Assembly: GCA_025360845.1 (NCBI GenBank)
Contig: JANYBJ010000320.1
Coordinates: forward strand, 1-42,731
Reading direction: 5' to 3'
Source of the DNA: a bacterium
GTDB taxonomy: Bacteria > Verrucomicrobiota > Kiritimatiellia > RFP12 > UBA1067
Length of the DNA: 42,731 nucleotides
The translations under genes were made by a program, and so were the position numbers. Shown one piece after another: positions 1,287 through 27,222 of this stretch. Positions within the stretch are counted from its first letter, which is position 1. The number at the start of each line of letters is the position of its first letter. The notes under the pieces are model-generated. The model ran no database searches and had not been told where the DNA came from. It was given only the letters and a program-made list of their open reading frames with translations.

Positions 1287-3545
1287 ATGAGCGCAGGGCT
1301 GACCGTCGCGCTGGTGGGGAACCCCAACACCGGCAAGACGACGCTGTTCAATCTGCTGACCGGCGCGCGCGAGCGCACGGGCAACTGGACCGGCGTGACG
1401 GTCGACAGCGCCCATGCGTGCTTTGAAGTGACGGGCCGCGTTCTCCGAGTGGCCGACCTGCCGGGCATCTACTCCTTCTCGCCGAACACCGAGGACGAGC
1501 GCGTGGCGCGCGATTACCTGATCGGCAGCACGCCGGCGGTGGTGATCAACATCGTGGACGCTTCGAACCTTGAGCGCAGCCTCTATCTCACCGCGCAACT
1601 GCTCGACATGCGGGTGCCTCTGGTGGTGGCGCTCAACCAGATGGACACGGCGGAGCGGCACGGAATGCGGGTGGACCCTGCGCATCTGTCCAAGCATCTC
1701 GGCTGTCCGGTGATTCCGATGATCGCCTCGCGCGGCGAAGGCGCCGAAGCGCTGAAAGAGGCGGCTTTGCAGATCGCGGAGTCGCGCCGGCTTCCCGCGG
1801 CAAGGGTTTTGTACGGGGATGCCGAACGTTCGGTGCTGCGGCTGCAAGTGTGCCTGACCGTGGCGGCGGACGACGCGGGTGTGGACTCGCGTTGGCTGGC
1901 GATCAAACTGTTGGAGCGTGATCCGTTCGCACGCGAGCTTACGAAGGGGCTGTTCGACGAGGTCGTGGCCGAGGAGAACGTGCGGCTTAAGCGGCATACG
2001 GGACTCAAGCCCGAGGTCGTCGTGATGGATGCGCGGCTGGGGTTCATCCGCGGTTTGGCACGCGACGTGGTCACGCGGCGGCTGATGGCGCGCCGGCGTT
2101 TCTCGGACATGGCGGACCGTTTCCTGCTGAGCCGTCCGGTGGGCATTCCCGCGTTCCTGTGCGTGATGTACGGGGTGTTCTGGCTGACGGTGCGGCTGAC
2201 GCAGCCGCTGGTGGATTTTATCGACGGCGCGTTCGGCGCGCTGCTGGTACACGGGCCGCGCGTGTGGCTGCATGCGGCGGGCGTGCCTGAGCTGGCGGTG
2301 TCGGTGGTGTCCGACGGCTTGGGGTCGGGCCTCACGACCGTGGCGACCTTTATGCCGCCGATCTTCATGATATTCTTTTGTCTGAGCCTGCTGGAAGAGT
2401 CGGGCTACATGGCGCGTGCGGCCTTCATCATGGACCGGTTCCTCAACCTGATCGGGTTGCCGGGCAAGGCCTTTATCCCGCTGCTGGTGGGGTTCGGCTG
2501 CACGGTGCCGGCGCTGATGGCGACGCGCACGCTGGAGCAGCGGCGCGACCGGGTGCTGACCATGCTGATCGCGCCGTTCATGTCGTGCGGAGCGCGGATG
2601 CCGGTGTATGCGATCTTCGCGATGGCGTTCTTTCCGCAACACGGTAACGCGGTCATCTTCGCTCTGTACGTGATCGGCGCGGTGCTCGCGATCCTGTCCG
2701 GGCTGGTGTTGCACAAGACGCTTTTCAAGGGCGAGGTGTCGGCCTTCGTGATGGAGCTGCCGCCGTATCATGCGCCCGCACTGTGGGGATGTTTGGAACA
2801 CGTGTGGTATAATTTGCTGAGCTTCTTGGTCAGGGCGGGCAGGGTGATTCTGATGATCGCGGTGTTGCTGAGCTTGGCCAACGGGGCCTTCGAGTCAATC
2901 AGTCATGGGCACAGGCAGGCGGATGCCTGGCGTTCGGCGGCGGGCCGGGTGATGACGGTGGTGCTGCGTCCGATGGGTGTGGGCGCGGACAACTGGCCTG
3001 CGGCCGCCGGACTGATGACCGGACTGATGGCGAAAGAGGCGATCGTGGGCACGTTGGAGGTTCTGTATTCGCAGACGGATCAGCCGGGGGCACCCTTGCC
3101 TACGGCGGGCACCTTCGATCTTGCCGCCGAGTTGCATGTCGCGGTCAGGCAGTTGATGACGGATTACGGCTGGGGTGGTGAGCACCCGCTCGCCGTTTCG
3201 CCGTCAGTCGGTCCCCCCGGAGGAGGCAATGGCCTGCTGGAGGCGATGCGGCGCAATTTCGGCTCTCGGGCTGCGGCTTTCGCCTATCTGCTGTTCGTGC
3301 TGATCTACTCGCCCTGCGTGGCGGCGCTGATCGTGCTGGGGCGCGAGGCCGGCTGGCGCTGGATGGTTTTTTCGATCCTGTATCAGACGGTGCTGGCGTG
3401 GATGGTGGCGACGGCGTTCTATCAGATGGCCACCTTTTGGGCCGACCCCGCGCGTGCCGCGGTGTGGCTGGGCGTGGTGGCGGCGATGGCGGCTGGCGGT
3501 GTCGGATTGCTCCATTGGGCAGGAAAGAGAAAGACGCATGAGTGA
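1287..3545 (+). CDS. feoB: Ferrous iron transport protein B
   Basis: N-terminal G domain (GNPNTGKTTLFNLLTG, GNWTGVTVD, DLPGIYS, NQMD), FeoB membrane core (GFGCTVPALMATRTLEQRRDR), followed by feoA. Confidence 0.95.
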   Translation: MSAGLTVALVGNPNTGKTTLFNLLTGARERTGNWTGVTVDSAHACFEVTGRVLRVADLPGIYSFSPNTEDERVARDYLIGSTPAVVINIVDASNLERSLYLTAQLLDMRVPLVVALNQMDTAERHGMRVDPAHLSKHLGCPVIPMIASRGEGAEALKEAALQIAESRRLPAARVLYGDAERSVLRLQVCLTVAADDAGVDSRWLAIKLLERDPFARELTKGLFDEVVAEENVRLKRHTGLKPEVVVMDARLGFIRGLARDVVTRRLMARRRFSDMADRFLLSRPVGIPAFLCVMYGVFWLTVRLTQPLVDFIDGAFGALLVHGPRVWLHAAGVPELAVSVVSDGLGSGLTTVATFMPPIFMIFFCLSLLEESGYMARAAFIMDRFLNLIGLPGKAFIPLLVGFGCTVPALMATRTLEQRRDRVLTMLIAPFMSCGARMPVYAIFAMAFFPQHGNAVIFALYVIGAVLAILSGLVLHKTLFKGEVSAFVMELPPYHAPALWGCLEHVWYNLLSFLVRAGRVILMIAVLLSLANGAFESISHGHRQADAWRSAAGRVMTVVLRPMGVGADNWPAAAGLMTGLMAKEAIVGTLEVLYSQTDQPGAPLPTAGTFDLAAELHVAVRQLMTDYGWGGEHPLAVSPSVGPPGGGNGLLEAMRRNFGSRAAAFAYLLFVLIYSPCVAALIVLGREAGWRWMVFSILYQTVLAWMVATAFYQMATFWADPARAAVWLGVVAAMAAGGVGLLHWAGKRKTHE

Positions 3546-3783
3546 AAATAGACAGAGCGCCCTGGTTTCACAGCCGCGTTGCCTGATGGATCTGAAAGAC
3601 GGGGAGCAGGCGGTGATCCGCGTGAATGGCGACCGTAAGTCGACCGAAATGGGACTTTTCCCTGGAGCCCGCGTGAAAATGTTCCGCAACCGCAAGTCCG
3701 AGCGGTCGCTGGTGATCGGCGCGGGGGACGCGCGGTTCCTCGTGTCGCGTGTGATCGCCAAGGTTGTGGAAATCGAGGGGTAA
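3538..3783 (+). CDS. feoA: FeoA-like ferrous iron transport protein (81 aa)
   Basis: MSENRQSALVSQPRCLMDLKDGEQAVIRVNGDRKSTEMGLFPGARVKMFRNRKSERSLVIGAGDARFLVSRVIAKVVEIEG. ATG overlaps the feoB stop by 8 nt. Confidence 0.9.
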   Translation: MSENRQSALVSQPRCLMDLKDGEQAVIRVNGDRKSTEMGLFPGARVKMFRNRKSERSLVIGAGDARFLVSRVIAKVVEIEG

Positions 3784-3929
3784 GGGTTCAGCGTCCCGGT
3801 TAAAGGCAGGGACGCGGCCCTTCTTGGACCCCTAAGCCTGAACCCCGATATTTTGCTTTCTGCCGCGATTCGTGTTTCCTTCGGGCCTGAATCATACTAA
3901 AATAGGCGTATCTAAACTGGAGGTGTTTC

Positions 3930-4466
3930 ATGTGTAATTGGATGGTCATGCTTTTGTTGGTGCCGGCGCTGGCCGGATTCTGTCAGGACGCCGCAAAGCC
4001 TGCCGAGCCGCAGACGGTGGCCTCCTATGTTTGGGTCAACCAGAACGCGGAGAAACTGGACGTGTTCATGCAGGACGTGGCGTCGTTCTTTGAAAAGAAC
4101 GACTACTTCTACCTGGCGACGAGTGACGGCCAAGGTGCGCGCGTGCGTCCGATCCGCTATACGATGGTGGCGGACAACAAGCTGCTGTTCGTGACCTCGT
4201 CCAAGAAAGAAATGCACGCGCAACTGCTGAAGAATCCGAACGTCGAGTTGTCGCGGACCGCCAAGGACGACAGCGCGTACATCCGCTACAAAGGCAAGGC
4301 GGTCGTGGAGAGCGATCCGAAGGTGAAGGCCAAAATGCTGGAGCTCCAGCCGGCGATGGGCAAGAAGTTCGGCGATGACACGGTGATCTTTGCGATCGAG
4401 CCGGAGCAGGTCGGCATCTTTCCGATGAAGGGCGGTCAGGCCAAGACCAAGATTTTCACGAAGTGA
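3930..4466 (+). CDS. Pyridoxamine 5'-phosphate oxidase-like flavin-binding protein with N-terminal signal peptide
   Basis: MCNWMVMLLLVPALAGFCQDA signal; FFEKNDYFYLATSDGQGARVRPIRYTMVADNKLLFVTSSKKEMHAQLLKNPNVEL is PNPOx-like. Confidence 0.75.
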   Translation: MCNWMVMLLLVPALAGFCQDAAKPAEPQTVASYVWVNQNAEKLDVFMQDVASFFEKNDYFYLATSDGQGARVRPIRYTMVADNKLLFVTSSKKEMHAQLLKNPNVELSRTAKDDSAYIRYKGKAVVESDPKVKAKMLELQPAMGKKFGDDTVIFAIEPEQVGIFPMKGGQAKTKIFTK

Positions 4467-24596: not shown

Positions 24597-25202
24597 ATGA
24601 AACTGAGCAGACGCATTCTTGAAGGCGGGGTTATGATAATGCTTATGGCAACAAGTTGTTTTGGAGAAAACGACACGACGGAAAGAGCTATGCGACTTAT
24701 GTCTGCGCTACACTTCCCGACCAATACCGGAAGTGCCGTAACAAGCGAGTCTGTCTTTTCCGGTAAGAATCAAGTGAAGGTTGGAGACTTCCAGATGAAG
24801 CAAAAAGGGAGATCGACTATTGATTCTGGGGCTGTGGTGGATGTCGAGATACTCGACAAAGACGGCCAGATAACGGTTACGGGTTGCTTAATCGAGAGGG
24901 TGTCTTCCGATGGTGCTCGTAAAGCTTTGGCGGAAAGGCTGGTTCAGAACTCAATGCCCATCAACGTGCTGATTCGGAAATATGAACTGCGACCTGTGAG
25001 ATTGCGGATGCGCGGGGAATCTGCTTTACTGTTCACATGCTTGACACCCGCCCGATCACCGCCTATCTGCAGCAGGTCGCAAAGCTACTGCCGAATGCCC
25101 GCAGCAAAGAACGCGCTTACCGCTCGGATCTGCAAAATCTGGCGACCAAGGTGTGGAAACGGTCTTGCCACCATACCGGAAATAGTATGGTGTTTTCAGT
25201 AA
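24597..25202 (+). CDS. Small secreted hypothetical protein, probably C-terminally truncated or altered at the accessory junction
   Basis: MKLSRRILEGGVMIMLMATSCFGENDTTERAM signal; unnatural composition after about 25020. Confidence 0.5.
   Translation: MKLSRRILEGGVMIMLMATSCFGENDTTERAMRLMSALHFPTNTGSAVTSESVFSGKNQVKVGDFQMKQKGRSTIDSGAVVDVEILDKDGQITVTGCLIERVSSDGARKALAERLVQNSMPINVLIRKYELRPVRLRMRGESALLFTCLTPARSPPICSRSQSYCRMPAAKNALTARICKIWRPRCGNGLATIPEIVWCFQ
25037..25201 (+). pseudogene. 5' relic of a larger gene, methylase/restriction-like N-terminus
   Basis: MLDTRPITAYLQQVAKLLPNARSKERAYRSDLQNLATKVWKR..., then runs into the RM cassette. Confidence 0.4.
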
Positions 25203-26089
25203 GACAGCAAGAGTCGGTCATGAACGATCTCGTTTTCGAGCGTCCCCCCCTCGCACTGAAAACGTTTTAGCATGCTGCGTCCGCAATTGACGAAGACCTC
25301 ACGTTCAAATAACCCTTCTGGAATATCAAACGTGCAGTTCACGCGGCCTGACTTCTTGGTACCGTCAATGCTTAATGCGACCCTGACACCTCGATCCTTG
25401 CAGGCCATTATGGATTGCATGAGGCGAGGCAATGAGAAGTTCTGTCCACGATACAGAATAGCTTGACTGCAGACATACGGGGGATCACAGTAAACCAAAT
25501 CACCCTCCTGTGCCATAGCCATGGCCGCTTCAAAATCCAGATTTTCGAAGCTGGCCCCCGCTGTGCGACGCTGCCAGATTAGCACGCGTTCGGAGAACGA
25601 CGCGGGTGAGATCGGATCGTGTATTCCACACGGAGTCGATATGTACCCGTCTCTCTTACGGAAGCGAACGACACCCCCATAACATGAGCGGCAGATAAAC
25701 AGAAGGTCCGCACCATTCGGCTGTTCGTTGTACCGGGCTTTAATCTGTTCGTACCCGTCCGCCCGACCGAGTTTGTGATATTCAGTGTACCGGTCGCGAT
25801 ACCATTTCATGACCAACTCGGGATCCCGCTGTAACGTCTGCCAAATCTCAATCAAAGGCGTGAACACATCCGACCCGACCGCTTTCGGAGGCTGTAACGC
25901 ACCGAGCACCGCACCGCTACCCAGAAACGGCTCGCGGTATGTTCGAATGTCTGTGGGGAAGAATGACGCGATTTCATGTGCGAAACGCTGTTTATTGCCA
26001 ATCCATTTTAGAAGCTGCGTCTTGAACTCCGATACATGCTGAAAGGCGGTTCCGTAAAAAATATCAAGCGTATCTTCCTTAACTTTCAT
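25196..26089 (-). CDS. D12-class (Dam-like) N6-adenine DNA methyltransferase
   Basis: LLKWIGNKQRFAHEIASFFPTDIRTYREPFLGSGAV (motif I), DLVYCDPPYVCS (DPPY motif IV). Confidence 0.92.
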   Translation of the reverse strand: MKVKEDTLDIFYGTAFQHVSEFKTQLLKWIGNKQRFAHEIASFFPTDIRTYREPFLGSGAVLGALQPPKAVGSDVFTPLIEIWQTLQRDPELVMKWYRDRYTEYHKLGRADGYEQIKARYNEQPNGADLLFICRSCYGGVVRFRKRDGYISTPCGIHDPISPASFSERVLIWQRRTAGASFENLDFEAAMAMAQEGDLVYCDPPYVCSQAILYRGQNFSLPRLMQSIMACKDRGVRVALSIDGTKKSGRVNCTFDIPEGLFEREVFVNCGRSMLKRFQCEGGTLENEIVHDRLLLSY

Positions 26090-26095
26090 GAATAC

Positions 26096-26124
26096 AGTAT
26101 ATCCTGATTTGGGATACAGGTCAA
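26096..26124 (-). promoter_or_regulatory. Predicted methyltransferase promoter TTGACC-N17-TATACT; ATG 6 nt downstream of -10 (leaderless)
   Basis: Reverse complement: TTGACC (26124-26119), TATACT (26101-26096), ATG at 26089. Confidence 0.65.
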
Positions 26125-26144
26125 CTATATCCTATACTAGGATA
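26100..26144. promoter_or_regulatory. Two 17-bp dyad operators (C-box-like): TATCC-N7-GGATA at 26100-26116 and 26128-26144
   Basis: TATCCTGATTTGGGATA and TATCCTATACTAGGATA; centres 28 bp apart, in the divergent intergenic region. Confidence 0.75.
26109..26138 (+). promoter_or_regulatory. Predicted XRE-regulator promoter TTGGGA-N18-TATACT; GTG start 7 nt downstream (leaderless)
   Basis: TTGGGA 26109-26114, TATACT 26133-26138, GTG 26146. Confidence 0.6.
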
Positions 26145-26145
26145 C

Positions 26146-26391
26146 GTGAAACGAAACAGATACGCTGGCAGCGAACAACATCTACGGCGCATTTTGCGCG
26201 ATTCCCGTATGTCCAGGGGAATTAAACAAGAGGATCTTGCGGAAACGCTCAAGGTGCCGCAGTCCTTTGTCAGCAAATACGAATCCGGCGAGCGGATGCT
26301 GACTTTTGTTGAAACCGTTTCGATCTGCCTCGCCATGGACATCACCCCGGAAACACTCTTAAAGGAGTACTTGCCTCACCATGAAACCTGA
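26146..26391 (+). CDS. XRE-family HTH regulator (C-protein-like controller of the RM cassette)
   Basis: LRRILRDSRMSRGIKQEDLAETLKVPQSFVSKYESGERMLTFVETVSICLAMDITPETLLKEYL; GTG start. Confidence 0.85.
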   Translation: MKRNRYAGSEQHLRRILRDSRMSRGIKQEDLAETLKVPQSFVSKYESGERMLTFVETVSICLAMDITPETLLKEYLPHHET

Positions 26392-27222
26392 CATGCGCTT
26401 TGTTGGTCTTCCAAAATGTTTCTGGGCATCGGTCCGTTTGATCGGGCAAGAATGCGGTTACGCCAAGGCAAAAATACTGACCATCCCGACACGCGAAAAG
26501 GTCGAAGCTGTTTTCTCCCGGCTCAACCTCGATGCGGCAACGCTCGACAAGTCGTTAGGCAACGGGCGGACTATGTGGAAGATGCTCGTGGCATATTTGA
26601 CTTATCGCGCTGCGGTTCTGCACAATCATTTCGACCCCAACCTCATGGATGCAGCGGCGGCAAAGCGAGCGTTCGACAAACTCAAGAAGGAGTTCCATCC
26701 AAAGTGTCCTTTGCCGATGAACAAACAGAAAGGAGTAAAAAAGCTCCTGCCTATTTCACTGGCATAATCAATATCTTAATCGAAGCGAATGCTGACGGAA
26801 CACCCTGCGATTTCGATCCGAGGGTGTTGGCAACCGTCTCGAAAAGTGGTGTGCCCATCCGAACATTTGCACGAAGAATGGACGGCGGTTTTCCTTCGGT
26901 CACAAACCCCCTCGCCATATGGGAAGTGAAAGAGTATTACTACACAACCACCTTTGGCAGCCGTGTGGCCGACGGTGTTTATGAAACGTTGCTTGATGGC
27001 ATGGAGATCGAAGAACTTGAAGCGTCTGAGGGAATTAAGGTCCTCCACTACTTGATGATTGACGCGCATTACACATGGTGGGAGTGTGGTAAATCCTATC
27101 TGTGCCGAATCGTGGACATGCTTCACATGGGTTACGTTGACGAGGTCCTTGTCGGAAAGGAAGTCCTTAGCCGCGTGCCCGAACTTGTTAAAGAATGGAA
27201 CACGCAACTCGCTCGTTCATGA
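26381..27222 (+). CDS. Putative type II restriction endonuclease (PD-(D/E)XK-like) requiring -1 frameshift at A_AAA_AAG (26737-26743); fusion about 280 aa
   Basis: Frame A (26381-26767) ends ...PMNKQKGVKK|LLPISLA*; frame B continues KK|APAYFTGIINILIEANADGTPCDFDPR...NPLAIWEVKEYYYTTTFGSRVADGVYE... Confidence 0.7.

What the first reader, a model, noticed from the sequence alone, without database searches (positions are those of the whole stretch)
26381..27222. Putative restriction endonuclease split exactly at an A_AAA_AAG slippery heptamer
Seen: frame A (26381-26767) reads ...CPLPMNKQKGVKK then LLPISLA*. Frame B carries APAYFTGIINILIEANADGTPCDFDPR...NPLAIWEVKEYYYTTTFGSRVADGVYE. The two join seamlessly by a -1 shift on 26737-26743 (A AAA AAG in the zero frame), with AAAGGAG immediately upstream and a weak TGCC/GGCA stem 4 nt downstream. 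Known: A_AAA_AAG is the E. coli dnaX -1 frameshift heptamer and A-runs also support transcriptional slippage. Inference: the nuclease is either made by recoding, which would limit R relative to M, or switched off by a 1-nt homopolymer indel (phase variation, decay or assembly error). An alternative is a second product starting at GTG 26704, behind AAGAAGGAG.
Basis: partly seen in the sequence, partly recalled or inferred. Interest (0 to 1): 0.88.

Follow-up and report, generated by a model that had tools for sequence, protein, structure and literature searches.

The report
Broken BclI-type restriction enzyme gene
A bacterium's copy of a BclI-like DNA-cutting defence gene has lost one letter, so the cutter is probably no longer made while its protective partner gene is intact; this is an ordinary step in the decay of such systems, not a programmed frameshift.

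Summary
Frame A (26381-26767) and frame B (to 27222) join at 26737-26743 (A_AAA_AAG) by a -1 shift and together make one protein. That protein is a BclI-type restriction enzyme: both halves share Pfam DUF7690/DUF7687 with the restriction gene next to C.BclI on plasmid pBcl1, and the neighbours (divergent D12 adenine methyltransferase, HTH controller) match. Recoding is not supported. Relatives are single-frame or broken elsewhere. The two closest read GCC/GCA-AAG-AAA-GCT where the window reads GTA-AAA-AAG-CT, so the window lacks one base, and that loss created the heptamer. The GGAG lies 1 nt from the heptamer, the downstream stem is no better than shuffles and also occurs in an intact relative, and the genome has a tRNA-Lys(CUU). 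In 28 loci with both genes readable, the endonuclease is broken in 9, by different lesions, and the methyltransferase in none; this favours biological decay over assembly error for the family. The window branch still shows mainly synonymous changes on both sides of the junction, so the break is recent (or, for this one contig, an assembly error). Most likely: a recently inactivated restriction gene beside an intact methyltransferase. Ordinary; low interest.

The parts
25196..26089 (-). Dam/D12-family N6-adenine DNA methyltransferase (M), 297 aa, intact
   Evidence: Pfam MethyltransfD12 E 2.1e-27; PADLOC MTase_II E 4e-66; 94% and 90% identical over full length to M of L007 and L008, 50% to M of the pBcl1 BclI system
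26090..26145 (.). M-C intergenic region with two conserved dyads (TATCC...GGATA type), the presumed controller-protein operators
   Evidence: alignment of 14 loci; binding is inferred
26146..26391 (+). HTH controller (C) protein, 81 aa, GTG start, overlaps the start of R by 11 nt
   Evidence: HTH_3 E 1.9e-9; matches C.BclI 2b5a E 5e-7 and C.AhdI 1y7y E 4.4e-5; present at the same place in relatives
26381..26767 (+). 5' fragment of the endonuclease gene (frame A, 128 aa; real homology ends at codon 121): DUF7690 plus the first ~35 positions of DUF7687
26737..26743 (+). AAAAAAG run: site of the 1-nt deletion relative to relatives (AAGAAAG in L007 and L008) and apparent A_AAA_AAG heptamer
26743..27222 (+). 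3' fragment of the endonuclease gene (frame B), rest of DUF7687, containing the D-x13-E-V-K motif and the predicted catalytic core

Best explanation
The window holds a BclI-type Type II restriction-modification system, in the order M, divergent C, R. Its endonuclease gene has recently lost one base in a Lys-Lys codon pair (GTA AAR AAA GCT to GTA AAA AAG CT). Translation from ATG 26381 now stops at 26767 and gives a 128-aa product without the nuclease core. The methyltransferase and controller are intact, so the cell probably carries modification without restriction. Shown: one-protein homology, the base missing relative to relatives, intact M and C reading frames, and repeated independent breaks of R in the family. 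Inferred: that R is inactive, that the base is truly missing in the cell, and that M is active.
For: R is single-frame in 19 of the 28 loci with readable M and R, and in none of the others is the break at this place. Closest relatives L007 and L008 have AAG AAA at the junction. R is broken in 9 of the 28: window; L008 (T5 to T4 at codon 14); L016 (GGG to GG near codon 15); L009, L023 and L026 (nonsense); L028, L029 and L032 (deletions). M is broken in none; sign test p = 0.004. Assembly error should hit M and R alike. Family identity: the C protein on pBcl1 is identical to C.BclI, PDB 2b5a; the R beside it has the same DUF7690+DUF7687 architecture; NEB414 is the BclI source with TGATCA methylation (PMC5805893). 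AlphaFold2 model of intact L007 R (pLDDT 92): invariant D168, E182 and K184 lie on the strands after the junction at residue 121.
Against: Both halves still look selected on the window's own branch (13 synonymous: 3 nonsynonymous changes before the junction, 15: 3 after). This fits a recent break but equally a still-working gene, whether by recoding or because the missing base is an assembly error. No reads were available. One MAG consensus cannot show whether the whole population carries the deletion.
Confidence: 0.72

Rival explanations
1. Assembly or consensus error: the gene is intact in the organism and one base of the A/G run is missing from this MAG contig.
For: Purifying selection on both sides of the junction on the window's branch. 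A short A-rich run is an error-prone place. The contig comes from a 326-contig MAG.
Against: M, of about the same length, is never broken in 28 loci while R is broken in 9, so most R breaks in the family are not random errors. No frameshift was confirmed among ORFs shared with a same-genus genome (about 12,000 aligned aa); one of two weak candidates was inspected and is a gene border, the other rests on a 17-residue match and was not followed. A run of six A is short for Illumina errors (own knowledge; platform unknown).
Confidence: 0.17
2. Programmed or incidental -1 ribosomal frameshifting (or transcriptional slippage) at A_AAA_AAG makes a useful amount of full-length endonuclease.
For: The heptamer is the dnaX type, in the right frame and direction. 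Selection on the 3' half persists. Rescue of an interrupted gene is known for tssM with 11 A (PMC4256274).
Against: Relatives do not use a shift here; where A_AAA_AAG occurs (L018) it is read straight. GGAG ends 1 nt before the heptamer, whereas the dnaX stimulator lies about 10 nt upstream (own knowledge). The stem is no better than shuffles and also present in intact L007. The genome has tRNA-Lys(CUU) as well as (UUU); a CUU tRNA is expected to reduce slippage at AAG, though it does not exclude it (PMC4066793, PMC5009743). Six A is far below the 11 A of tssM.
Confidence: 0.08
3. Two-product gene: the C-terminal nuclease is made on its own from GTG 26704 or another internal start.
For: GTG 26704 lies in frame B behind AAGAAGGAG.
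Against: The AAGAAGGAG is 11 nt from the GTG and encodes the Lys-Lys-Glu stretch of frame A. The product would lack DUF7690 and the start of DUF7687, which intact relatives keep. No intact relative is organised as two genes.
Confidence: 0.03

Closest known systems
BclI Type II R-M system (Bacillus caldolyticus NEB414 plasmid pBcl1; T^GATCA)
   Same: Gene order divergent M - C - R; M 50% identical; R with the same Pfam architecture DUF7690+DUF7687 at ~41% identity; C related to C.BclI (2b5a)
   Different: R is split by a 1-nt deletion here; specificity of the window system is not shown, and TGATCA is only mildly depleted in the genome sample (obs/exp 0.73, rank 24 of 64 palindromes)
Solitary (orphan) methyltransferases beside degraded endonuclease genes (reported by Seshasayee et al., as cited in PMC6471742)
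   Same: Intact M next to a broken R
   Different: The break here looks very recent; C gene and presumed operators are still intact
E. coli dnaX -1 frameshift cassette
   Same: A_AAA_AAG heptamer in the correct frame
   Different: No correctly spaced upstream SD, no convincing stem-loop, no conservation, and a second lysine tRNA (CUU) in the genome

Membership tests
BclI-type Type II R-M system | R homologous over its whole length to the R encoded next to C.BclI | tested here: met
   fused query residues 1-271 align with the pBcl1 protein at 41% identity; same Pfam pair; PADLOC REase_II model, 285 positions
BclI-type Type II R-M system | D12-type m6A methyltransferase divergent from the controller gene, with R downstream of it | tested here: met
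BclI-type Type II R-M system | controller protein of the C.BclI/C.AhdI kind | tested here: met
   2b5a E 5e-7, 1y7y E 4.4e-5; two general XRE-family proteins score slightly better
BclI-type Type II R-M system | recognises and cuts T^GATCA | not testable with these tools
   word statistics inconclusive; needs methylome or digestion
BclI-type Type II R-M system | uninterrupted R reading frame | tested here: not met
   1-nt deletion at 26737-26743: filed as a broken member
PD-(D/E)XK nuclease fold | conserved D ... (D/E)xK on core strands followed by helix and strand | tested here: inconclusive
   invariant D168, E182, K184 and a strand-strand-strand-helix-strand order in a confident model; Foldseek best hits PspGI, BstEII, Shedu nucleases but E >= 0.044
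programmed -1 frameshift gene | slippery heptamer conserved as the joint between frames in homologues | tested here: not met
programmed -1 frameshift gene | stimulatory SD or structure at suitable distance | tested here: not met
   GGAG 1 nt upstream; stem z -0.40
programmed -1 frameshift gene | full-length product made from the split gene | not testable with these tools
   needs a reporter or mass spectrometry
phase-variable R-M gene | long hypermutable repeat (about 8 or more units) at the switch point | tested here: not met
   only six A at the site; relatives have no longer run there; length threshold from own knowledge

The most novel reading that the evidence does not exclude
The deletion is tolerated because low-level -1 slippage at the new A_AAA_AAG still makes a trickle of endonuclease, so the lesion has lowered R relative to M rather than abolished it.
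Probability: 0.06. Interest if true: 0.6.

Novelty: new member of a known kind. Interest (0 to 1): 0.2.

Why it matters
It is a clean example of how restriction is lost before modification: in this BclI-type family about a third of the readable endonuclease genes carry independent breaks while the linked methyltransferase is never broken. It also ties two Pfam domains of unknown function (DUF7690, DUF7687) to the endonuclease of a commercial restriction enzyme. If the recoding reading were right, it would be a rare case of frameshift control of a restriction enzyme, but the evidence points away from that.

Tried and rejected
Programmed frameshifting was tested by conservation of the heptamer, spacing of the upstream SD, folding of the downstream RNA and the lysine tRNA set; rejected as the main explanation. 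Heptamer rarity: 3 in-frame cases in 73,175 codons, but the deletion itself makes the heptamer, so rarity is no argument. Site avoidance as a clue to specificity: TGATCA not notably depleted, inconclusive. Search for an R relative in phage records: none; viral contigs: one, with an intact R. TIGR02397 (dnaX) gave no match over its cut-off in the genome, so no comparison with the host's own dnaX was made.

Full report
What is there. Frame A runs from ATG 26381 to a stop at 26767, and frame B is open to 27222; AAAAAAG lies at 26737-26743. Pfam places DUF7690 and the first 35 positions of DUF7687 in frame A and positions 29-187 of DUF7687 in frame B, so the two frames are parts of one protein.

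What the gene is. Upstream lie a controller gene (26146-26391) and, divergent from it, a D12 adenine methyltransferase gene (25196-26089). The same order M - C - R occurs on plasmids of Bacillus caldolyticus, B. methanolicus, B. cereus and Corynebacterium glutamicum. On the B. caldolyticus NEB414 plasmid pBcl1 the controller is identical in all 77 residues to C.BclI (PDB 2b5a), and NEB414 is the source strain of BclI with m6A at TGATCA (PMC5805893). The R beside it carries the same two Pfam domains and aligns with the joined window protein over its residues 1-271 at 41% identity. The identification of that protein as R.BclI rests on its place next to C.BclI and M; it was not found named as such. 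PADLOC calls both halves REase_II. The window system is therefore BclI-type; its own recognition site is not shown.

Where the break lies in the protein. AlphaFold2 on the intact relative L007 with 18 others gave pLDDT 92. Invariant D168, E182 and K184 sit on or beside consecutive core strands followed by a helix and a strand, the order of PD-(D/E)XK nucleases. Foldseek gave only weak hits (best E 0.044), but the top ones are PspGI, BstEII and Shedu nucleases. The junction is at residue 121, so the frame A product has none of the predicted catalytic core.

Why it is a deletion and not a recoding site. In the relatives that cover this place the reading frame runs straight through the Lys-Lys (or Lys-Arg) codons; L023 has a nonsense codon a few codons earlier but the same frame. 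L007 (85% identical) reads GCC AAG AAA GCT and L008 (89%) GCA AAG AAA GCT; the window reads GTA AAA AAG CT, one base fewer. Losing one base from GTA AAR AAA G produces the heptamer by itself. L018 has A_AAA_AAG in frame and is read straight. The GGAG ends 1 nt before the heptamer. The downstream stem scores z -0.40, and L007, which needs no shift, has a longer form of it. The genome carries tRNA-Lys(CUU) and tRNA-Lys(UUU); a CUU tRNA is expected to reduce slippage on AAG, although elements with such motifs exist in species that have it (PMC4066793; PMC5009743). Six A is far below the 11 A of the documented tssM slippage (PMC4256274).

Decay, error or still working. In 28 loci where M and R can both be read (window, 21 from the genome scan, 4 plasmids, 1 viral contig, 1 same-phylum genome; duplicates L033, L034 and L137 left out), R is broken in 9 and M in none, sign test p = 0.004. 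The lesions differ: L008 lost a T from TTTTT, L016 lost a G from GGG, L009, L023 and L026 have nonsense changes, L028, L029 and L032 have deletions. Sequencing error should strike both genes equally, so the family pattern is biological. This is the known path by which R is lost and M stays; orphan methyltransferases next to degraded endonuclease genes have been reported (cited in PMC6471742). For the window itself, changes on its own branch are mainly synonymous on both sides of the junction (13:3 and 15:3). So the break is recent, or it is an assembly error, or the gene still works; only reads or an assay can tell. A comparison with a same-genus genome showed no confirmed frameshift in about 12,000 aligned residues.

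Verdict. A recently inactivated BclI-type endonuclease gene beside intact M and C genes, probability about 0.72; assembly error 0.17; recoding 0.08; separate internal start 0.03. Ordinary biology, with a mildly useful by-product: DUF7690 plus DUF7687 is very likely the BclI-type endonuclease.

Noticed in passing
window 26090-26145: Two conserved dyads (TATCCTGATTTGGGATA and TATCCTATACTAGGATA) between M and C, shared by most compared relatives, likely controller operators with GTCAA between them.
   Followed up: partly
L008 2963-3004 (and L033), L016 1993-2053 (and L034): Two other related MAGs have R broken by independent 1-nt deletions in short runs at the same Phe-Trp-Ala codons 14-16.
   Followed up: yes
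L030 3001-3471; L140 1501-1920; L031 3001-3240: C-terminal R fragments without a neighbouring M, apparent remnants of lost systems.
   Followed up: partly
L006 (Marinobacter salarius plasmid) 1544-4333: A variant system with a Dam-type M, a controller, a second site-specific methyltransferase and a distant DUF7687-like R in one cluster.
   Followed up: no
L057 3001-4760: A viral contig (IMG/VR) carries R and M in convergent order, unlike the divergent M - C - R order elsewhere.
   Followed up: no
genome sample G000: GTGCAC, CAGCTG and GAGCTC are strongly depleted (obs/exp about 0.18-0.24), less so in the same-genus genome, which hints at other restriction systems.
   Followed up: no
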